A stretch of DNA of 36,273 nt, taken from Campylobacterota bacterium. GTDB lineage: Bacteria; Campylobacterota; Campylobacteria; Campylobacterales; Sulfurimonadaceae. The notes below the pieces were generated by a model, which saw only the letters and a list, made by a program, of their open reading frames with translations, ran no database searches and was not told where the DNA came from. The stretch covers positions 1 through 36,273 of the forward strand of contig JAMCPS010000025.1 of assembly GCA_023379705.1 (NCBI GenBank), given 5' to 3'. A program made the translations under genes and the position numbers. Numbering within the stretch: position 1 is the first letter of the stretch; the number at the start of each line of letters is the position of its first letter. Below, one piece after another: positions 14,175 to 30,730 of the stretch.

Positions 14175-14202
14175 CTATTACTTTTTTAAAGCAGGTATGT
14201 GG

Positions 14203-17143
14203 ATGAATATTGAAGAGATAGGAGCGCTGTTACAAAACAAAAAAAAGCTCCTCTCTGAAGTCTATTTTGAGCTTCAAGCGGCATGTGAGGCCAAATATGG
14301 CCCTGACGCGCTCGTCATCATCGAGATAGGGTCGTTTTTTGAGGTGTATGAGGTCAATAATGCTGATCTCAAGATTGGAAAAGCCAAAGAAGTGGCTGAG
14401 TTTTTGAACATTCAGCTCACCCGTAAAAACAAAACGATTCTCGAAACCCACTGTTCAAAATCCCCTTTTGGCAGGAGTTCCCACCGTCTCCATCGAACGT
14501 TATCTCAGCCGTTTGGTCCAATCCAAAAAATACACCATTGTTCTTGTACGTCAGCAGGGTGAACCGCCTCATATCAAACGCTATATTTCCAATATTATTT
14601 CTCCGGGTACCAATTTTGATTACATTGCTGAAGTGAGTGAAAATTACATTGCTTCTCTTTTAATCGATCAAAACAACGGGGTTTATTCGGTAGGGTATGC
14701 CGCCATCGATGTCGGAACGGGTAAAACATTGATCAATGAGATACATGGGACGCGTGAGGACAAAACCTATGCCCTCGATGAGATATTTACCCTACTGCAA
14801 AGTTATCTCACTTCTGAAGTGGTTGTGACCTATTGTGATAGCAGTATTGATGTAGAAGAGGTCAATCGCTATTTGGAACTCAAAAGTCATCATCGCAGCA
14901 ACCGTAATGAGAAAAGACTGCGTATTGATTACCAAAATGAGCTGTTTGAGCGTATCTATCAGATTCGCTCTTTGTTAAGTCCCATCGAGTATTTGGATTT
15001 GGAGCGTTTTGCGTATGCTTCGGAGTCGTTGGCACTGCTGATTCATACGATTATCGATCATGATCCCGCTATCATCGAAAAAATGAACCGTCCTACCTTT
15101 TTGGGAACCAATCGTTATCTGTATCTGGGCAACAATGCGGCGGAACAGTTGGGGATTATCTCCAGAGATCATGATGAAATGACGTTGTTAAAGTTGATTG
15201 ATAAAACATCCACGGCGATGGGAAAACGGCTGATGCGTGAACGTTTGCTTAACCCTATCTGCGATGCAAGCTTGTTAAATGAACGGTATGATCTGATTGA
15301 AAAAATGGAAGATCATATTTCACCCTTGGAAACAAAACTCAAAGAGGTCTATGATCTGGAACGGATTTTACGCCGTCTGAAATTGGGTAAGTTGCACCCC
15401 TTCGAATTGGCGTATTTTCATGCATCGTTGAGTGCTGCTGAGAGCTTATTCGCGGATGCCAAGCGTTTAGGGATCGATTATGATAAAAACAGCGCCGTAG
15501 AAGCGCAGCTGTGTGCCAGTGAGTTGAAACGTATTTTTGATATTGATTCGTGTGCGAAATATCGACGTGATCAGGTGAACGAAAACCTCTTTAATGAAGG
15601 GATAGACCCTGCCATCGATGCATTGGAGCAGTTGCAAGAGACCAACGAGTCGAAGCTGCAGCTGATTATTGATCATATTGATCAACATTTTGAAGGCGGT
15701 AGCGGTCCGTATGCTTCGATCGGGTGGCTAGAGAGTGAGGGGTATCATCTGCTTATGACCCGTAATCGGTATGTCAATGTCGAGGAAGTACTGTACAACA
15801 GCTTTTTCACCATCGATGGGAGCCACTATTTTTTCCGTGATTTTCAGATACGCAAACTCAAAACAACGGTGAAGCTCACCTCTGCACTGCTGGATGATCT
15901 TTCCATCGAAAATGCAGGGGCAAAGTCTCGTATGCTGGCGATGGTCAAAGAGCGGTATCGTGAGCATATGGAAATCATCGAAAAACGTTTTTCCCATGCG
16001 ATTGAACATTTGATCTCTTTTTTAGCGGTTATCGATGTATCTCTCAGTGCGGCAAAGGTGGCGAAACAATACCGCTATGTCCGTCCCACTCTGGTTAATA
16101 ATGAATCGAAGACGTTTATTGAAGCGGTGGCTTTGCGTCATCCGTTGATCGAATCGCGCGAAGAAAACGGTATTTTTATCCCCAATGATCTGTTTTTAGG
16201 GGATGGGGCTAACCACACGTATGCAGAGCACACGACATTAGAAAATGCTAAAGAAGTCAACGGCGTATTGCTGTACGGGATCAACTCCAGCGGTAAGTCG
16301 TCGCTGATGAAAAGTATCGGAATTGCAGTGGTAATGGCGCAGGCAGGATTTTTTGTCCCGTGTGCGATGATGCGGTTTTCTCCTGTGGATAAGTTGCTGA
16401 CGCGTATCGTCTCCAAAGATAACCTGTATAAAGGGTTGTCCACGTTTGCGGTGGAGATGTTGGAGTTGCGTAATATATTCAACCGTGCCACCCCTAACAG
16501 TTTGATTTTGGGAGATGAGATCAGTCACGGTACGGAGACCGAATCGGCATTGGCGATTGTGGCGAGTGCAATTTTGAAATTGCGTGAGATCGGCAGTTTG
16601 TTTATCTTCGCAACACACTTGCATCAGCTCTCTAGTTTGAGTGAAATCCAAAAAGCGCAAAACATCGTGTTGCTGCATTTGGGTGTTTATTATGATGAGG
16701 CTACGGATAAGCTCGTTTATGACCGCAAACTCAAAAATGGGAGTGGGAGCACCCTGTACGGATTGGAGTTTGCAAAATCGCTGCACATGGATGAGACCTT
16801 TATCCAAAAAGCGTATGAGATACGAGGACGTATCGGAGATATGAAGGGTGAAGTTTCACAGCTCAAGCGTGAGAAAAAAAGCCGTTATAACAGCAAGCTG
16901 TATCTGACGAAATGCGCGTTGTGTGATGAGGCAGTGGATGAAGTGCATCACATTATCCCTCAAGCCAATGCGGATGAGGGGGGATCAATCGGTCATTTCG
17001 GCATGAATCACCGCTACAATTTAATTCCTCTTTGTTCAAAGCACCACAGGCTCGTGCATGAGGGTAAAATCGCTGTTCATGGGTTTGTTATGAGCGAAGA
17101 TGGCTTAAGGCTCAGTTACAGCGAAACGGGAAGTGATTCGTAA
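14203..17143 (+). CDS. MutS7-type DNA mismatch repair protein with C-terminal HNH domain, frameshifted near residue 84
   Basis: Two overlapping frames together encode one MutS of about 979 residues. The first frame carries the mismatch-recognition F-x-E region (GSFFEVYE, about 43-50). It is lost at about 14450-14470, and the second frame resumes with [18 protein letters not shown]. The span minus one base is divisible by three, so one extra base (perhaps a T at 14454-14455) explains it. The rest is intact: Walker [10 protein letters not shown] (about 692-700), Walker B LILGDE (D771/E772) and FATHLHQLS. After the ATPase comes an HNH nuclease: CALC (904-907), HHIIPQ (915-920), [10 protein letters not shown] (940-949). 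MutS with C-terminal HNH is the MutS7 type known from Epsilonproteobacteria, giant viruses and octocoral mitochondria. I prefer the ATG at 14203 over 14197, as AGGT is then well spaced. The frameshift may be a sequencing error in the A4/C4/T4 runs or a real mutation. Confidence 0.85.
17006..17127 (+). repeat. Left copy of the duplicated mutS 3' end
   Basis: These 122 bases of the intact mutS align without gaps to 19733-19854 (constant offset 2727). I count about 18 mismatches by eye, roughly 85% identity. The copies bracket the AT-rich defence insert as direct repeats. Confidence 0.9.
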
Positions 17144-17344
17144 GGCCTATTTTAGGGAGATTTAAAACATTTTTTCCATAACTTTTGTGTAATACTTTTT
17201 TAAGAGTAATTACATAATTTTTGGCAAAAAATAAACATACAGTTATAGTTATTTTTTATTCTGAAATATTTATTTTTTAAACTTTAGATTGATATAGTTT
17301 TGGGTAAAATAATAACTATTTACAGCTAAGTGGCGGAATCTATA

Positions 17345-17520
17345 ATGGCACTCTCTGAATCAGATACTGTTCAAAACTTATTGACGAGAAAATCAAAGAG
17401 AGTGAATGAAATGAATCCAATATTGTTAGGGAGTATTTTTTTACTGACGGACATAAACTTATCGGTAATAAAAGCTGAAAATAAAGACAGGCATTATTAG
17501 TGAAATTACATCTTATTTTG
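17345..17520 (+). pseudogene. Decayed N-terminus of a type I restriction endonuclease subunit R (HsdR)
   Basis: Three short frames, joined, resemble the start of HsdR. From ATG 17345 the peptide reads MALSESDTVQNL. The frame then shifts by one base and continues from about 17389 as DEKIKESE, a TGA, then NESNIVREYFFTDGHK with LIGNK after it (ending at 17472). The frame shifts again to ENKDRHY, a stop and NYILF (to about 17518). In intact relatives this region runs LIDxxLxxxGW, then REYYFTDGRKLIGNK and DYLLF, leading to the nuclease domain. The TGA sits where tryptophan (TGG) is expected. With two frameshifts and at least two stops it cannot be functional. No helicase part follows. The identification is by pattern only; no homology search was possible. 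Confidence 0.55.
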
Positions 17521-17586
17521 ATGGGATACCACAGATAGGCATGAATATTTAGAGTTGCAGAAAGAGCTTTATAGATGAAGTTAAAC

Positions 17587-17626: not shown

Positions 17627-18955
17627 ATGAGAATAGATAAAACAGAGATAGTAAATTTTAAAATCTTTGATGAAACAGAATTTTCATTTAACGAAAATTT
17701 TAATCTGATTATTGGTATTAATGGAAGTGGGAAAACTTCACTTTTAAGAGCTTTGGCTATTTCTTTAGCAGGTTGGGCAAATGCTTATATTAAAAGTGAA
17801 AACAATTTACGACCTATAAAAGATGATGAAGTACGAGAAATTCAAAAAGATGGAAGATTCGACAAAACAAAAGAAACTTTTATCAAATCAACTGGAAAAG
17901 CCGTAATTATTGATGATTTTGATAATAAAAAAAATATAGATATCGTATGGAAACGAAAACGAACAGAAGAGAATAAAGATACAGAAATATCTTGTTCTGT
18001 TAAATATGAACTTTCACCAACATGCTACAGTTATGCTAATTTTTCTAATTTAGGAAGAAGTACACTAAAATATATTGAAAAAGGTAATAATTTTGATTTA
18101 CCTTTAATAGCTTTCTATGAATGTGATAGGTTATGGTTAGTAGAAGATAAACTTAATATTGAAGATGTTGCAAAAGTCCAATATTCAAGATTCACTCCAT
18201 ATACCAACTGTTTTCATACGGGTGCTAATCATACCGCTATTGGAGAATGGCTGTTAAAATATGAACTTGTGAAATTACAACAAAAAAAAGAAACACCCGT
18301 GTTAGATGCCATTAAAAATGCAGCAAGAAATGCTCTTGAGCATTGTACAGATATTAGTTTTGATTTTGAAGAAGGACGAGTTATTGTTGATCTTGAAGAT
18401 AGGTCAATCCCATTTGAACATTTGAGTGATGGTCAAAGGACTATTTTAGGACTATTCTGTGATATCGCAAGACGAGCTGCGATTTTAAATCCTCATTTTG
18501 AAGGAGAAGCAAATGAAAAGACAAAAGGTGTTGTTTTAATTGACGAATTAGATTTGCATTTACATCCCAAATGGCAAATGAATATTATTGATAATTTACA
18601 AAAGACATTTCCAAATATACAGTTTATTTGCACTACACATAGCCCAATTTTATTAAGAAGTATAGAAAAAGAAAAAATCATAATTCTTGAAAATGGTAAA
18701 CGTTCACAGCTTGAATTTTTTACAAAAGGTAGAGATATAAACTCTATTCTCTATGATTTGATGGGTGTTCCAAAACGTACAAAAGGGTATGAGGATAAAG
18801 TTGATAATTTATTTGGATTTTTAGAAGATGAAAATGTTGAAAAAGCTGAAGCAATATTGATTGAGCTGAAAAAAGATTATGGTGAAAAAGATTCTGTTGT
18901 TCAAGAGGCTCAAATTTTACTGGATATGATTAAAGATAATGACGCTGATAGTTAA
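17627..18955 (+). CDS. ptuA: Septu-like PtuA, SMC/ABC-type AAA ATPase
   Basis: A 442-residue ATPase of the SMC/RecF-like ABC class. Walker A GINGSGKT is at 30-37, the ABC signature LSDGQ at 266-270, Walker B VVLIDELDLHLHP at about 302-313 and the switch histidine in CTTHSP at 335-340. The 'LDLHLHPKWQ' form is typical of defence and OLD-like ATPases. It overlaps the HNH gene by 17 bases. An ATPase of this type plus a PtuB-type HNH nuclease is the layout of the Septu anti-phage system and of the effector module of retron Ec78. No reverse transcriptase or msr-msd is visible, so stand-alone Septu fits better. In known systems PtuA assembles with PtuB and controls its nuclease. Base composition is much more AT-rich than the flanking genes, suggesting transfer. 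Confidence 0.78.
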   Translation: MRIDKTEIVNFKIFDETEFSFNENFNLIIGINGSGKTSLLRALAISLAGWANAYIKSENNLRPIKDDEVREIQKDGRFDKTKETFIKSTGKAVIIDDFDNKKNIDIVWKRKRTEENKDTEISCSVKYELSPTCYSYANFSNLGRSTLKYIEKGNNFDLPLIAFYECDRLWLVEDKLNIEDVAKVQYSRFTPYTNCFHTGANHTAIGEWLLKYELVKLQQKKETPVLDAIKNAARNALEHCTDISFDFEEGRVIVDLEDRSIPFEHLSDGQRTILGLFCDIARRAAILNPHFEGEANEKTKGVVLIDELDLHLHPKWQMNIIDNLQKTFPNIQFICTTHSPILLRSIEKEKIIILENGKRSQLEFFTKGRDINSILYDLMGVPKRTKGYEDKVDNLFGFLEDENVEKAEAILIELKKDYGEKDSVVQEAQILLDMIKDNDADS

Positions 18956-19661
18956 AAATAAACCTTCTAATTTACATCATAAATTGGTTAAATTTCAACA
19001 AGATATTAATGGTACATACCCAAATTTAACTCGTGAAATCAAAGATGATTTATTAAAAGCATTGCTCGAAGAACAAGGATATATTTGTGCTTATTGTATG
19101 CAAAAAATTAATCAAAGTAATTCTTCTATTGAACATATAATCGGGCAAAGTTTCATTGATGAAAATGGTTATAACTTAGGTGAAGAAAATCAATTAAATT
19201 ATGAAAATTTACTCGCTGTATGTGAAGGAAAAAGTTGTAAAGGAAATAATCAACATTGCGATAAAAGCAGAGCAGTTTATCAAGATAAAGTACCCAAAAG
19301 ACGATTGTTTATAACTCCTTTGGAGAATAGAATTATCCAAAATATCAAATACGCCAATAATGGATTTATTTTTTATGATGATTTTACAGAAATTAAAGAT
19401 ATTGAAGAAATGAGCAATCATACTGAGCTTAGTGAAGTAGAAAATATCAAATATGATCTTCAAGAAGTTCTAAATCTCAATTGTGAGGAATTGAAAACAA
19501 AAAGAGGCATTTTATTGAATGCACTAAAAAGATTAACAAAAAATTGGACACATAAAGAAAAAATAGAAAAAGAATTAATTAGATATCAAACAAAAACTTC
19601 ATCACAATATGAAGAAATGTGTCAAGTAGCTATTTATCATTTATCTAAAAAACTAAAATAA
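18939..19661 (+). CDS. ptuB: Septu-like PtuB, HNH endonuclease
   Basis: A 240-residue HNH nuclease of the kind often annotated as 'retron system putative HNH endonuclease' or TIGR02646-like. Zinc/HNH elements: CAYC at 50-53, IEHIIGQ at about 64-70 with the catalytic histidine H66, NYENLLAVC at about 88-95 with the HNH asparagine region, and a distal cysteine-histidine cluster C100...QHC(105-107). The C-terminal 100 residues are charged and helical. It starts inside the last codons of ptuA (17-base overlap), so the two are translated together. The expected role is nucleic-acid cleavage on phage infection, under PtuA control; the trigger is unknown. It is unrelated in detail to the HNH tail of the neighbouring MutS, although both are HNH proteins. 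Confidence 0.75.
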   Translation: MTLIVKNKPSNLHHKLVKFQQDINGTYPNLTREIKDDLLKALLEEQGYICAYCMQKINQSNSSIEHIIGQSFIDENGYNLGEENQLNYENLLAVCEGKSCKGNNQHCDKSRAVYQDKVPKRRLFITPLENRIIQNIKYANNGFIFYDDFTEIKDIEEMSNHTELSEVENIKYDLQEVLNLNCEELKTKRGILLNALKRLTKNWTHKEKIEKELIRYQTKTSSQYEEMCQVAIYHLSKKLK

Positions 19662-19723
19662 AGTGACAGAAATCAAGGCAACCTTTGGAATCAAAAATAA
19701 ATCGAATAAATAGGGCGTTTAAA

Positions 19724-19858
19724 ATGAAAAAAAATCACCGTTACAATTTAATCCCTCTTTATTCAAAGCACCACAGGCTCGTACATGAGGGGAAAATTGC
19801 CGTTCATGGGTTCGTTATGAGTGAGGATGGATTGCGGCTGAGCTATTGGGAAACCTAA
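19724..19858 (+). pseudogene. Truncated second copy of the mutS HNH tail
   Basis: From ATG 19724 an open frame of 44 codons reads [17 protein letters not shown] and on to a TAA at 19856-19858. Its last 40 or so residues match the MutS C-terminus almost perfectly. Only two residues differ in the shared part: Cys to Tyr at the second HNH cysteine (the TAT codon at 19760) and Ser to Trp near the end. This copy ends RLSYWET, while the full mutS ends [11 protein letters not shown]. It lacks the first CxxC and the HH residues, so it cannot fold as an HNH domain. It directly precedes the acyl-CoA synthetase, so it is probably the stump of the original mutS end. Whether it is translated is unknown; the upstream ribosome site is poor. 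Confidence 0.85.
19733..19854 (+). repeat. Right copy of the duplicated mutS 3' end
   Basis: Ungapped direct repeat of 17006-17127. Most of the roughly 18 differences fall at third codon positions. Upstream, ATGA is shared, but this copy has six extra A, and similarity is then lost. Confidence 0.9.
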
Positions 19859-19869
19859 AGGAAGAGACA

Positions 19870-21813
19870 ATGAGAGAATCGGAAATTTATGATCTGCTGG
19901 AAAGTTATGACTTCAAAACTACTCGCTATGTCTCTTTTAAAATGGACGAGATTCCCCCTATTGATTTTTTTCCTGTTGTGGTTAAACTGGAATCAGATAA
20001 AGTGGTCCATAAAAGCGATTTTGGAGCGGTCAAGCTCAATATCAACTCTTACGAACAATTGGAGCAAGCCAAAAGTGACATCATTGCCAATGTAACTGCT
20101 CGCGGTGTTGTTTTGGATGATGAGGATAGGTTTATAGCTGTACAGATGCTCAGCGGGATCGAGCTGTATGTGGGACTGGTCGATGATGCGATATTTGCTA
20201 AAACGATTGTCTTTGGAAAGGGTGGGATTGAACTTGAGCTTTACAAAGATGTCTGTTACATTGATATCAATGCCCAAGATGAAGAGATCGTGCGGGCTAT
20301 CAATCTAACCACCATCTCAAAAATATTTCACGGGTTTAGAGGGTTTGAATATTCGATTGAGATGGCTGTAGAGCTGATTCACTGCATTCAGAAGTTCTCA
20401 CGCGATAATCCCCAGATTGTTGAGCTTGATTTTAACCCTGTGATTTTGACTAAAAGTGGACTTACGGTTGTGGATGCACGGATAAAAAAGGGTGAGGCTG
20501 CGCTTGAAAAATTAGGAAGCTTACGAAAAAACAGACCCCACTTTTTTACGAATGAACGCTTGGCCCTCATCGGTGCCTCTTCGGATTCTACGAAAGTAGG
20601 CTATGCAATCGCTCACAATGCACTTGCATTTACGGGGGAGCTTTTTTTAGTCAATGCGAAGGGCGGAGAGCTTTTTGGTCATCGGCTTTATAAGAGCGTT
20701 AGTGAGATTGTGGGGGATATAGATACGGCGGTTATTATGATTCCCTCGCATTTTGTTATTGAAACCATTAGGGAATTAATCCTCAAAAATATCAAAAACA
20801 TTGTCATTATCACGGCTGGATTTAAAGAATCGGGTGATTATGAGAGTGAAAATGCGATTGCAAACTTGGCTCAAACGCACAATTTTAATGTCATCGGTCC
20901 CAATTGTTTGGGATATTTGGAGAGTTCAAAAAAACTCAATGCGACCTTCGGAACAGGAGGATTGCGAAGCGGAGAGCTGGCATTGCTCTCACAATCGGGA
21001 GCGGTACTCTCAGCGCTTATGGATAAAGCGTACGATGCGGGGATAGGATTTTCCCATCTTGTTTCGTGCGGGAATATGGTGGATCTGGATTTTGCCGAGA
21101 TGATCGATATGCTCAATCGTGAAGAATCGTGCAAATACATCTCTATCTATGCAGAAGGGATTAAAAACGGCAAAGAATTCTTGCGAGCGATACGAGAGAG
21201 TTCCAAAAAATTCTACATTTTTAAAACAGGAAAGTCGGCACAAAGCAAGAAAGCGGCCTTTTCCCATACGGGTAATCTCAGCGGGAACTATGCCATGTTC
21301 AAAGGGTTGATGGAGTCAGTGGGAGCAAAGATAGAGGATGATATCGAAGCATTACTCTTTAATCCGTTCAATGAAGTGAAAAATATTTTGGTCGTGACCA
21401 ATGCGGGCGGTCCTGCGAGTATTTTAGTCGATTACATCGTGGATCAGGGCGCAACACTCCATACGTTTACTCCCGAAGAGCTTGAAGCGCTCAATGCCGT
21501 TCTCCCAGCCAACTGGTCGAAAAACAACCCTGTGGATATCATAGGAGATGCAATGGCGGATCGCTATGAAAAGACACTGGAGGTTGTGGGGAAGATACAA
21601 GAGGTTGATTTGGTCTATGTGATTATCACCCCGCAATGCATGACCGATACGCTCAATATTGTCAAACTGTGTGAGCTGTGCGAGCGTGAAGGGAAACAAA
21701 AAGTTTATCCGATTCTCTTGGGCGGGCATGAGATGGAAGAAGCGCAGCGCTATCTAAGAAGCAAGCAAATTCCTTTCTTCAAAACCCTGCAATCGGCAAC
21801 CTCGTTTTTATAG
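19870..21813 (+). CDS. ADP-forming acyl-CoA synthetase (acetate--CoA ligase type), fused subunits
   Basis: A 647-residue fusion with the ATP-grasp (beta-like) part first (about 1-205; KLESDKVVHKSDFGAVKLN and ELDFNPVIL) and the CoA-binding/ligase (alpha-like) part after (from about 225; LALIGASSDSTKVGYAI). The phosphohistidine motif AAFSHTGNLSG is at about 465-475, and IGPNCLGY and LLSQSGAV are the CoA-ligase signatures. Such enzymes interconvert acyl-CoA plus ADP and phosphate with the free acid plus ATP; the substrate cannot be read here. I start at the ATG at 19870 with AAGGAAGAG upstream, 11 bases after the mutS stump's stop. It was probably co-transcribed with mutS before the insertion. 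Its TAG overlaps the convergent GGDEF gene stop. Confidence 0.85.
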   Translation: MRESEIYDLLESYDFKTTRYVSFKMDEIPPIDFFPVVVKLESDKVVHKSDFGAVKLNINSYEQLEQAKSDIIANVTARGVVLDDEDRFIAVQMLSGIELYVGLVDDAIFAKTIVFGKGGIELELYKDVCYIDINAQDEEIVRAINLTTISKIFHGFRGFEYSIEMAVELIHCIQKFSRDNPQIVELDFNPVILTKSGLTVVDARIKKGEAALEKLGSLRKNRPHFFTNERLALIGASSDSTKVGYAIAHNALAFTGELFLVNAKGGELFGHRLYKSVSEIVGDIDTAVIMIPSHFVIETIRELILKNIKNIVIITAGFKESGDYESENAIANLAQTHNFNVIGPNCLGYLESSKKLNATFGTGGLRSGELALLSQSGAVLSALMDKAYDAGIGFSHLVSCGNMVDLDFAEMIDMLNREESCKYISIYAEGIKNGKEFLRAIRESSKKFYIFKTGKSAQSKKAAFSHTGNLSGNYAMFKGLMESVGAKIEDDIEALLFNPFNEVKNILVVTNAGGPASILVDYIVDQGATLHTFTPEELEALNAVLPANWSKNNPVDIIGDAMADRYEKTLEVVGKIQEVDLVYVIITPQCMTDTLNIVKLCELCEREGKQKVYPILLGGHEMEEAQRYLRSKQIPFFKTLQSATSFL

Positions 21814-27045: not shown

Positions 27046-28848
27046 TTAGGATTCAAAAAAGAATTTTTTCTCGTCGCCTTCTTTGTGCAGGCGAACATGA
27101 GTGATATTGCCTATGGGTGAGAGAGTGTAGGGTTTGCGCGTTTTGGGATCAATAAATTGGATACGGGTATTTCCATCATAGGTTTTGTTATGGGTAACTA
27201 CTGCCTCTAAATCAGCTTCATAGAGCCGATCGAGCTTGCGTTCAAATGCGTGCAGGGCATCTTCTTGCGCTTTGATCATGATCGCTTCATTTTTTAGAGA
27301 TTCAACTGCACTTTTATAGTGGGTAAGACGTTCTTTGTCTGATTTGAGAGGTTCACGATTTTGGCGGGTTGCGGTATTGATATTGTCAATGGTTCGCTGA
27401 ATGCGTATACGATCCTCTTTGAGGAGAAGTTCTTTTTGGAGGTATTTCTTGCCTCTTTCTCGCAATTCAAGTTGTTTGCGTATTAATTCGTCCTCTAGAA
27501 CAGTTATTTGTTCCAAATAGCTCGGAATGGCTCTGGGATTGATGATAAGATCATTGCCATCTCCTACGATGCTTTTGATTTCAATCGATTCCAATGCGGT
27601 AATTTTAGCATTGGAATACAGAACATCGATGATAACGCGCTGTGCTATGATCTCTCCTCCTGACATACTTTTTACATGCACCGTTTGGGCTTCTACGGTT
27701 CCGGCTTCGAGAATATCGATGGAGGCATTTTTGGCTTTTAGATTTCCGCGATGCAAATGGATGGTGGCATTGCCCTCTACTTCGATGAAGGATTTTTTAT
27801 GGGTTTGCGCTCCGATGGTGACTTCACAGGCTTGGATTTTGGTATTGCTTCCAACAGTTCCTTTGACATCGAGTGTTTGGACATCGATATTGACGCCTGA
27901 TCCGACAGCATCATCCCCCTCTTCACCGGCTCCTATTTTAATATTAATCTCTTTTTCGCTGCCTGCTTCGAGTGAACCGGTACTTTTGAAACTGGCACTT
28001 TTTAAATGAAGGTCCTGGCTGATGGTAAAAAGACCATTTTTACGCTCAACGAATCCGGATTTGGTGGCATAAAAACGGATGGAATGGTGATCTTCTTGGG
28101 CTCTGATACTTTGAGGGTCTGTATTAATCGCATTGGCGTAACGAATCAGCGGATTGCCTACGTGAATATGTTTTCCTGTGCAGCTTCGTCCGTCTAGCCC
28201 ATTTTGAGGAAGGATGTATTCAAGGATAAGGTCATCTACTTCAACACCGTCAAGTAGATTATTGGTGCGTTTTATTTTTTTATAGTGAAGTATCACGTTG
28301 TCATTGGTTGGTGCAGTAGGCGGGAAAAAGTGGGCGATGGGCAATCGGTAGGGTTCGTTAAGCGGCCCCTCTTTTTGGATTTTGAGAAGCATCGCATTGA
28401 TCTCTTTTTCAAGACTTCCATCGGTGATTCCAATCATACAGCCGCTACGGAGTTTTTTGCGGTTAATGGTCTCTTTTATGTACTCTTGCAACCCTTTTTT
28501 GAGTGGAAGGTTCGAAGAGGGGTTAATAATGGCTACCAGTTTGGATTTGTATTTATCTGAAGCCATAGTGAAACGAAGATCAAAATAAGGGTGTGGCACT
28601 AAAGGACGTACTAGAAGTTGGTACTCTTGGCGAATCAGCAACAGGGGTGAGCGTATTTCCACTTCGGTGGTGATGTCACCTAGATTGTCACCATCAAATG
28701 TACACCAATCCTCGTCAATAGCTCCACGATACTGTGTTTGATAGGAGAGCACATCAAAGTCAATAGCATCAATGGGGAGATTCCACTGTTGTGCAATTTT
28801 TTTAAGCTCATCAGGAACAGTAAAAGTCGTTATTTTGGTTGTGTGCAA
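27046..28848 (-). CDS. FapA (DUF342)-family protein, copy 1
   Basis: A 600-residue protein of the FapA/DUF342 family. The N-terminal 170 residues are alpha/beta. The family core starts around 215 (VEVDDLILEYILPQNGLDGRSCTGKHI) and runs into a right-handed beta-helix of short repeats (about 270-445: SASFKSTGSLEAGSEK, VTIGAQTHKKSFIEV, GEIIAQRVII). A long coiled coil follows at about 455-560 and a small C-terminal domain ends in KKFFFES. No signal peptide or membrane segment is present. FapA in Vibrio affects flagella and polar localisation; the exact function here is unknown. The start is TTG at 28848, since the nearest ATG is out of frame. It is a tandem paralogue of the next gene. Confidence 0.8.
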   Translation of the reverse strand: MHTTKITTFTVPDELKKIAQQWNLPIDAIDFDVLSYQTQYRGAIDEDWCTFDGDNLGDITTEVEIRSPLLLIRQEYQLLVRPLVPHPYFDLRFTMASDKYKSKLVAIINPSSNLPLKKGLQEYIKETINRKKLRSGCMIGITDGSLEKEINAMLLKIQKEGPLNEPYRLPIAHFFPPTAPTNDNVILHYKKIKRTNNLLDGVEVDDLILEYILPQNGLDGRSCTGKHIHVGNPLIRYANAINTDPQSIRAQEDHHSIRFYATKSGFVERKNGLFTISQDLHLKSASFKSTGSLEAGSEKEINIKIGAGEEGDDAVGSGVNIDVQTLDVKGTVGSNTKIQACEVTIGAQTHKKSFIEVEGNATIHLHRGNLKAKNASIDILEAGTVEAQTVHVKSMSGGEIIAQRVIIDVLYSNAKITALESIEIKSIVGDGNDLIINPRAIPSYLEQITVLEDELIRKQLELRERGKKYLQKELLLKEDRIRIQRTIDNINTATRQNREPLKSDKERLTHYKSAVESLKNEAIMIKAQEDALHAFERKLDRLYEADLEAVVTHNKTYDGNTRIQFIDPKTRKPYTLSPIGNITHVRLHKEGDEKKFFFES

Positions 28849-28927: not shown

Positions 28928-30730
28928 TTAGGATTCAAAAAAGAATTTTTTCTCATCACCTTCTTTGTGCAATCGGATATGAGTGACGTTTCCATGAGGT
29001 GAAACAGCATGAATTTTACCTGTTTTTGGATCCACAAACTGAACGCGTGTGTGTCCATTGTATTCTTTGCTGTGGGTCACAACTGCATGTAAATCGGCAT
29101 CATAGAGCTCATCGAGTTTACGTTGAAGGGCGTGTATCACCTCTTCTTGCGCTTTGATCATAATCTCTTCATTTTTGAGAGTTTCAACGGCATGTTTATA
29201 CTGCATGACTCTGACCTTGTCGGCTTTGTTGGGGAGTCGGTTTTCTCGGACTGCTTGATTGACTTTTTCGATGGTTTGAGCGATACGTATATGTTGTTCT
29301 TGGAGTGCAACTTCTTTTTGGAGATGCTCTTTTCCTTTTTTTTGCAGTTCAAGCTGTTTGCCGGCCAAGTCATTTTCTAAAATACTGATTTGGTCATAAT
29401 AGCTGGGTATTGCCCGTGGATTTATTATGAGCTCATTTCCATTTCCTTCAATGCTTTTGATTTCAATCGATTCGAGTGCGGTAATTTTGGCATTGGAATA
29501 GAGAACATCGATGATGACGCGCTGTGCTATGATCTCTCCTCCGGACATATTTTTGACATACACCGTTTGAGCTTCTACGGTTCCGGCCTCGAGGACATTG
29601 ATAGTGGCGTTTTTGGCTTTTAGATTTCCGCGATGCAAATGGATGGTGGCATTTTCCTCTACTTCGATCAATGATTTTTTATGGGTTTGCGCCCCAATGG
29701 TGACTTCACAGGCTTGGATTTTGGTATTGCTGCCTATGGTTCCTTTAACATCGAGCGTCTGAACGTCGATGTGAACACCCGCACCGATTGCGTCATCGTC
29801 TTCTTCACCGGCTCCTATTTTAATATTAATCTCTTTTTCGCTGCCTGCTTCGAGTGAACCGGTACTTTTGAAACTGGCACTTTTTAAATGAAGATCCTGG
29901 CTGATGGTAAAAAGACCGTTCTTGCGCTCGACGAATCCGGATTTTGTGGCATAAAAACGGATGGAATGATGATCTTCTTCGGCTCGCATGGTTTGAGAAT
30001 CGATACCTATAGCATGCCCATAACGTATAAGCGGTTCACCAACATGGATATGCTCACCCGTACAACTGCGCCCATCGATGCCGTTTATGGCAAAAATATA
30101 TTCAAAGATCAGATCGTCCACTGCTACACCATCAACGAGATTGTTTTCACGCTGGATTTTTTTGTAGTGAAGAATAATATTGTCATTGACGGGCAATGTG
30201 GGTGAGTAAAAAGTGGCAATCGGCAAACGATAGGGCTCTTTGAGCGGACCCTCTTTTTGAATTTTAAGAAGCAAAGCCTTGATCTCTTGATCCAAGGTTT
30301 GATCGGTAATTCCCACCAGATAGCCATTACGGAGCTTTTTACGATAAATGGTCTCTTTGAGGTATTCCTGTATCCCTTTTTTGAGAGGTAATGTGGAAGC
30401 TGGATCGATCACCGCTACGATTTTGGTTCGATATTTATTAAATGCTATGCTGAAACGAAGATCGAAATATGGGTGTTGCGTAGCGGGATAGACCTTTATG
30501 TAGTACTCTTGACGCACTAGGAATATTTTTGATCTTATTTCTATTTCAGTGGTAACTTCTTCAAGATTGTCTCCTTCAAGTGCTTTCCAGTCTTCATCAA
30601 CAATTCCTTTGTATTGGGTCTGATAGGAGAGCAGATCAAAACTAATCGCTTCGAGTGGAAGATGTTCTTGCTGTGCAATTTTTTTGAGCTCATCTGGAAC
30701 ATTAAAAGTGGATATTTGAATGGTGTTCAA
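28928..30730 (-). CDS. FapA (DUF342)-family protein, copy 2
   Basis: A 600-residue tandem paralogue of the gene at 27046-28848, exactly the same length and domain order: N-terminal domain, GRSCTGEHIHVG hinge, beta-helix, coiled coil and the same KKFFFES end. The beta-helix is almost identical between copies, including a 92-base perfect match (29802-29893), while the N-terminal part and the coiled coil have diverged clearly. This copy also starts at TTG (30730), preceded by the sequence ATGAGAAAAATTG, very similar to the leader of copy 1. Two overlapping TATAAT boxes lie about 41-51 bases upstream. The 79-base gap to copy 1 suggests one transcription unit. The function is unknown; flagellar or polar roles are inferred only from the family name. 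Confidence 0.8.
   Translation of the reverse strand: MNTIQISTFNVPDELKKIAQQEHLPLEAISFDLLSYQTQYKGIVDEDWKALEGDNLEEVTTEIEIRSKIFLVRQEYYIKVYPATQHPYFDLRFSIAFNKYRTKIVAVIDPASTLPLKKGIQEYLKETIYRKKLRNGYLVGITDQTLDQEIKALLLKIQKEGPLKEPYRLPIATFYSPTLPVNDNIILHYKKIQRENNLVDGVAVDDLIFEYIFAINGIDGRSCTGEHIHVGEPLIRYGHAIGIDSQTMRAEEDHHSIRFYATKSGFVERKNGLFTISQDLHLKSASFKSTGSLEAGSEKEINIKIGAGEEDDDAIGAGVHIDVQTLDVKGTIGSNTKIQACEVTIGAQTHKKSLIEVEENATIHLHRGNLKAKNATINVLEAGTVEAQTVYVKNMSGGEIIAQRVIIDVLYSNAKITALESIEIKSIEGNGNELIINPRAIPSYYDQISILENDLAGKQLELQKKGKEHLQKEVALQEQHIRIAQTIEKVNQAVRENRLPNKADKVRVMQYKHAVETLKNEEIMIKAQEEVIHALQRKLDELYDADLHAVVTHSKEYNGHTRVQFVDPKTGKIHAVSPHGNVTHIRLHKEGDEKKFFFES

What the first reader, a model, noticed from the sequence alone, without database searches (positions are those of the whole stretch)
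19733..19854. The two mutS ends differ mainly at silent positions
Of about 18 base differences between the repeats, only two change an amino acid. A copy made by simple duplication and then left to decay would collect changes at all codon positions. The pattern instead says both ends evolved under selection in separate functional mutS genes before being brought together. So one of them arrived by transfer with the defence genes.
Basis: partly seen in the sequence, partly recalled or inferred. Interest (0 to 1): 0.6.

Follow-up and report, generated by a model that had tools for sequence, protein, structure and literature searches.

The report
Defence island replacing a mutS end
In Sulfuricurvum bacteria, anti-phage gene clusters have repeatedly inserted at the very end of the DNA-repair gene mutS, each bringing its own copy of that end and pushing the original end to the far side of the insert; the two mismatched 'repeats' in this window are therefore the immigrant end and the displaced native end, not a duplication.

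Summary
The two 122-nt mutS 3' ends (17006-17127, 19733-19854) differ at 18 bases, mostly third codon positions, and only two codons change the amino acid (dN/dS 0.022). A sister Sulfuricurvum genome (G032) has the empty site, mutS running straight into the acyl-CoA synthetase gene. It shows that the RIGHT copy is the native 3' end and that the LEFT gene received the tail that came with the island: host-like to about codon 876, foreign beyond (11/33 mismatches against 3/90 upstream, P=2.5e-5). Both amino-acid changes are private to the displaced right copy, so it is decaying. The same arrangement occurs in about 8 of 41 Sulfuricurvum genomes, scattered over the mutS tree, and in none of the other genera sampled. 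The backbone is a type I restriction-modification operon with a variable defence gene between hsdR and hsdM; in this window only hsdR and hsdM remnants flank an intact Septu (PtuAB). No integrase gene was found. Best explanation: horizontal insertion by recombination inside the mutS 3' end, which serves as a portable homology arm. A trans-acting site-specific recombinase is not excluded.

The parts
14468..17143 (+). mutS (domains I, III, V + C-terminal HNH; MutS7-type make-up), main open frame; the first ~90 codons lie in another frame (14197-14562)
   Evidence: Pfam MutS_I, MutS_III, MutS_V, HNH_2; N-terminal frameshift against G032
17006..17127 (+). left mutS 3' copy: host-like to about offset 90, island-type for the last ~33 nt
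17128..17217 (+). island left end: extra codons GSDS, stop, hairpin-like GGCCTATTTTAGGG and AT-rich tail, shared with islands of other species
17208..17474 (+). remnant of hsdR upstream region and 5' end, 87% DNA identity to intact hsdR islands of G001 and G027
17496..17579 (+). remnant of hsdR 3' end (about 2.1 kb deleted in between)
17627..18955 (+). ptuA, Septu ATPase, intact open frame
   Evidence: PADLOC PtuA 1.5e-118
18939..19661 (+). ptuB, Septu HNH nuclease, intact open frame
   Evidence: PADLOC PtuB 4e-42
19675..19709 (+). remnant of hsdM 5' end, 97% identical over 35 nt to G027; rest of hsdM and hsdS deleted
19706..19732 (+). island right end (ATAAATAGGGCGTTTAAAA...), shared with other islands
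19733..19857 (+). right mutS 3' copy with its stop codon: native host end displaced by the island, now without its upstream gene; carries private Cys-to-Tyr and Ser-to-Trp changes
19870..21813 (+). acs (NDP-forming acyl-CoA synthetase), native downstream neighbour of mutS; 94% DNA identity to G032

Best explanation
A defence island inserted into the 3' end of mutS by recombination within the last ~125 nt of the gene. Shown: the incoming DNA carried its own version of the mutS 3' end fused to the island's left end, so the upstream gene now ends in the immigrant tail, while the native 3' end was pushed to the island's right side, still joined to acs. Shown: the island derives from a type I restriction-modification operon (hsdR - cargo - hsdM - hsdS) with Septu in the cargo slot; most of hsdR, hsdM and hsdS is now deleted, leaving intact ptuAB. 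Inferred: insertion used homologous recombination (transformation or another DNA uptake, with the mutS 3' segment as a portable homology arm, as a circle by one crossover or as a linear piece by two), not an integrase of its own.
For: Empty site in the sister G032, with the same junction as the window's right copy. Left copy: 3/90 then 11/33 mismatches to G032; right copy at the normal rate. Same left-end and right-end sequences in islands of other species. In the bounded cases the right copy abuts the host-specific downstream region, which differs between species. G027's right copy groups with its empty-site kin G035/G038 (96/93), its left copy elsewhere; for G001 left+right as sisters is rejected at P=0.039. 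Island presence needs 7 changes for 7 genomes on the mutS-body tree. hsdR is more alike than mutS at fourfold sites in 5 of 6 genome pairs (e.g. 0.61 v 0.41). Island GC about 0.28 against 0.43-0.46 in the flanks. No recombinase domain in any island gene tested and no phage, plasmid or viral-contig hit for the mutS end. hsdR and hsdM remnants flank ptuAB in register. ComEC and DprA families are present.
Against: Homologous recombination is inferred from a mosaic within 123 nt and from the absence of a recombinase gene; a recombinase acting in trans is not excluded. All right copies of the main island type start at the same codon, as an attachment site would. The island ends carry repeats (TTTGATGCAA; AACTACACAAAAACTTCACA) that could be binding sites. 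Switch points rest on few sites. The 123-nt AU tests are mostly not significant. ComEC/DprA families also occur in bacteria not known for ready transformation (controls).
Confidence: 0.72

Rival explanations
1. Site-specific integration at a mutS 3' attachment site by a tyrosine or serine recombinase acting in trans or since lost, as for islands in tRNA or guaA 3' ends.
For: Gene end restored on insertion, direct repeats at both sides, same start codon in all main-type right copies, repeats in the island ends, tandem insertion in G028 with a middle copy carrying a left-end tail.
Against: No recombinase gene in the complete islands of G001 (8.2 kb) and G027 (11.7 kb) nor in the others. The switch from host to island type lies near codon 876 in the window's left copy but near codon 866 in G027's right copy, not at one fixed core.
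Confidence: 0.22
2. Insertion with long target duplication: the host's own mutS end was duplicated when the island inserted, and the copies diverged afterwards (the scheme proposed for restriction-modification genes in Helicobacter).
For: Same layout: RM genes flanked by a ~120-nt direct repeat of chromosomal sequence, no integrase.
Against: The copies are not each other's closest relatives and the left tail matches islands of other species. Divergence along the left copy is uneven (3/90 against 11/33). 16 of 19 changes are at third positions, not expected for decay of a free fragment.
Confidence: 0.04
3. Assembly artefact: two different mutS contigs from a mixed bin were joined.
For: The genome is a draft in 183 contigs with 7.9% estimated contamination.
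Against: Both flanks are equally close to G032 (mutS body 93%, acs 94%), and the same architecture is found in other, better assemblies, including one with a 2.57-Mb contig (G001).
Confidence: 0.02

Closest known systems
Insertion with long target duplication of restriction-modification genes (Nobusato et al. 2000, cited in PMC3031569 and PMC4978471)
   Same: RM genes inserted in a chromosome of the same phylum, flanked by a long direct repeat of chromosomal sequence, without an integrase gene
   Different: There the repeats are read as a duplication of the target; here they are two alleles, one native and one immigrant
[quoted passage not shown] 2017, PMC5635113)
   Same: Variable defence cargo next to a core gene, no recombinase, mosaic flanking gene
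   Different: There both flanking core genes give the homology; here the right-hand homology arm is a piece of the LEFT gene carried by the island, so it can land where the downstream genes differ
Genomic islands integrated in gene 3' ends (tRNA, tmRNA, guaA and others; own knowledge)
   Same: Island restores the gene end and displaces the native end to the other side
   Different: No integrase found; the target is the HNH-coding end of mutS; island and native ends differ by 12-29%
Type I RM loci with embedded defence genes (DarTG2 in the E. coli RRDM island, PMC12255303; R-linked ORFs in Campylobacter, own knowledge)
   Same: Variable defence gene inside an hsd operon
   Different: Here Septu, Tmn or a kinase sits between hsdR and hsdM, and in the window the carrier operon is lost while Septu stays

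Membership tests
Integrase-type genomic island at a gene 3' end | insertion restores the target gene's 3' end and leaves the native end at the distal side | tested here: met
Integrase-type genomic island at a gene 3' end | encodes a tyrosine or serine integrase | tested here: not met
   no recombinase domain in island genes
Integrase-type genomic island at a gene 3' end | fixed core crossover site | tested here: inconclusive
   switch points differ (window near codon 876, G027 right copy near 866) but rest on few sites
Insertion with long target duplication | flanking repeats are copies of one target sequence | tested here: not met
   right copy native, left tail foreign
Homologous-recombination hotspot beside a core gene | no mobility genes, variable cargo at one site in many genomes | tested here: met
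Homologous-recombination hotspot beside a core gene | excess recombination in the flanking core gene | tested here: inconclusive
   end window among the two most divergent of 39 in 4 of 7 close pairs, pairs not independent
Septu (PtuAB) | PtuA ATPase and PtuB HNH protein in one operon | tested here: met
   PADLOC 1.5e-118 and 4e-42, overlapping frames
Septu (PtuAB) | anti-phage activity | not testable with these tools
   needs a plaque assay
Type I restriction-modification island | hsdR, hsdM, hsdS present | tested here: not met
   window has only remnants of hsdR and hsdM; intact relatives in G001, G027, G028
MutS7 | MutS domains I, III, V plus C-terminal HNH, no II and IV | tested here: met
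   Pfam; definition from PMC3166940; no tree with other MutS families was made

The most novel reading that the evidence does not exclude
The island is an integrase-free mobile unit that carries a 3' piece of mutS as its own homology arm, so that it can enter any Sulfuricurvum mutS by ordinary recombination, replace the gene's end without breaking it, and swap defence cargo; apparent 'long target duplications' around restriction-modification genes in this phylum may be such native/immigrant pairs.
Probability: 0.45. Interest if true: 0.62.

Novelty: new variant of a known kind. Interest (0 to 1): 0.48.

Why it matters
It gives a concrete, testable route by which defence genes could move without a recombinase: a fragment of a conserved gene travels with the island as a homology arm and the gene end is exchanged. 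It re-reads flanking repeats of restriction-modification genes as native and immigrant alleles instead of duplications, defines mutS 3' as a defence hotspot in Sulfuricurvum, and shows Septu genes outlasting the restriction operon that carried them.

Tried and rejected
Local duplication followed by decay (contradicted by codon positions, closest relatives and the empty site). Mobile element with its own integrase (none found). Phage or plasmid carrying the mutS end (no hit). Island ends elsewhere in the genomes: the repeat TTTGATGCAATTTGATGCAA occurs only at the mutS islands, apart from one chance match inside a chemotaxis gene of G033. Extra mutS ends in other genera of the family: none. Septu of this type elsewhere in the family: only two distant PtuB relatives, so the donor is unknown. 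A first identity table was wrong for minus-strand loci and was redone. Literature searches found no description of the mutS 3' end as an insertion site in this genus.

Full report
What was checked. It has 18 differences within 122 nt (19 over 41 whole codons), 16 of 19 at third positions, with two amino-acid changes. Randomly placed changes would alter about 12.6 amino acids and never fewer than 6 in 20,000 simulations. dN/dS is 0.022. So both ends evolved as coding sequence.

What lies around it. Left of the pair is mutS with domains I, III and V and a C-terminal HNH domain, the composition that defines MutS7, a lineage that includes epsilonproteobacteria (PMC3166940). The repeat is the end of the HNH part. 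Between the copies lies an AT-rich stretch (GC about 0.28 against 0.43-0.46 in the flanks) with intact Septu genes ptuA and ptuB (PADLOC 1.5e-118 and 4e-42). After the right copy comes an acyl-CoA synthetase gene, here called acs.

The empty site. The genus is Sulfuricurvum (record titles). In G032, the closest relative (mutS body 92.9% DNA identity), mutS runs straight into acs. The last 40-odd bases of the junction (GGAAACCTAAAGGAAGAGACAATGAGAG...) are the same as after the window's right copy. The right copy differs from G032 at 11 of 123 positions, not distinguishable from the rate in the gene body (177/2538, P=0.37). The left copy differs at 3 of the first 90 and 11 of the last 33 positions (P=2.5e-5 within the copy; P=1.1e-5 against the gene body). 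The right copy is therefore the native end, and the left copy is native up to about codon 876 and foreign beyond. The foreign tail (GSDS, stop, then a CCTATTTTAGGG hairpin-like stretch) is shared, with small changes, by islands in G001, G027, G028, G021 and G034. The two amino-acid changes are private to the right copy, one at a Cys invariant in all 30 intact genes. Right copies in G028 and G034 carry stop codons, so displaced ends decay.

Recurrence. In 41 Sulfuricurvum genomes, extra mutS ends were found downstream of mutS in the window, G001, G027 and G028 (two), and on contigs of G019 and G034. G021 and G013 show the left side only, before their contigs end. None was found in the other genera of the family sampled. 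In the bounded cases the right copy abuts the region that follows mutS in that species' relatives, which differs between species (acs, a sensor gene and others). On the tree of the mutS body, seven island genomes need seven changes, so each stands among empty-site relatives. In the 123-nt tree, G027's right copy groups with its empty-site kin (96/93) while its left copy does not; for G001 a left+right pair is rejected at P=0.039. For the window the same test gives P=0.07, and most other tests on so short a stretch are not significant.

What the island is. The complete islands of G001 and G027 and the first of the two in G028 are type I restriction-modification operons. A variable gene sits between hsdR and hsdM: a Tmn-like NTPase in G027, a protein kinase in G001, an unknown gene in G028. 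In the window, the 5' and 3' ends of hsdR (17208-17474, 17496-17579) and 35 nt of the start of hsdM (19675-19709) survive on either side of ptuAB. Septu therefore sits in the same cargo slot and has outlived its carrier. hsdR is more alike between species than mutS at fourfold sites in five of six pairs (e.g. 0.61 against 0.41), the exception being G028-G001, which fits horizontal spread. A precedent for a defence system inside an hsd operon exists (DarTG2, PMC12255303).

How it moved. No recombinase domain was found in the island genes tested, and phages, plasmids and viral contigs gave no hit for the mutS end. The switch from native to island type lies at different places (window left copy near codon 876, G027 right copy near 866). 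The simplest mechanism is homologous recombination in which the mutS 3' piece on the island is a portable homology arm: a circle by one crossover, or a linear piece by two. This step is inferred. Against it stand the common start codon of the main-type right copies and the repeats in the island ends, which leave room for a recombinase in trans. The own genome carries the ComEC and DprA families, but so do many bacteria. A weak sign of repeated exchange is that the last mutS windows are among the two most divergent in four of seven close pairs, including the empty-site pair G035/G038; these pairs are not independent.

Relation to known things. Insertion of restriction-modification genes with 'long target duplication' was proposed from Helicobacter (Nobusato et al. 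2000, through PMC3031569 and PMC4978471). The layout is the same, but here the repeats are not duplicates. Hotspots without mobile elements and with recombination at flanking core genes are known (PMC5635113); the difference is that the right arm here is a piece of the left gene. I found no report of the mutS 3' end as an insertion site in this genus, within an open-access library only.

Verdict. Observation confirmed, interpretation supported with the corrections that the imported part is the tail of the left gene and that the right copy is native and decaying. A caveat on 'working gene': the window's mutS has a one-base frameshift near its start relative to G032, real or from assembly.

Noticed in passing
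14197-14562 and 14468-17143: The window's mutS has one extra base near 14450 relative to G032, splitting domain I from the rest; either a real frameshift (possible loss of mismatch repair) or an assembly error. Most other genomes have one open frame of 975-1019 codons.
   Followed up: partly
L043 (G028), 5000-18800 of contig C4: Two insertions in series: three mutS ends, the middle one carrying the island left-end tail, the last decayed and joined to an island repeat (TTTTGATGCAAT then CTGATCCC); the second insert holds a globin gene.
   Followed up: partly
L034 (G031): acs is deleted except for its last 39 codons, directly after mutS.
   Followed up: no
L041, L043, L048, island ends: Left and right island ends share direct repeats (AACTACACAAAAACTTCACATTTTT and TTTGATGCAA units); function unknown, possibly cargo exchange or protein binding.
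   Followed up: partly
L047 and L050 (G035, G038): Two empty-site sisters, 95% identical in mutS, differ by 23% in codons 847-866, the most divergent window; possible scar of a gained and lost island.
   Followed up: partly
L065 (G022 contig C30): A second, 46% identical full-length mutS lies between fragments of the main mutS type.
   Followed up: no
27046-28848 and 28928-30730: Two adjacent 600-codon genes on the minus strand are paralogues (71-74% DNA identity over parts); the same adjacent pair is present in G032 and G005.
   Followed up: no
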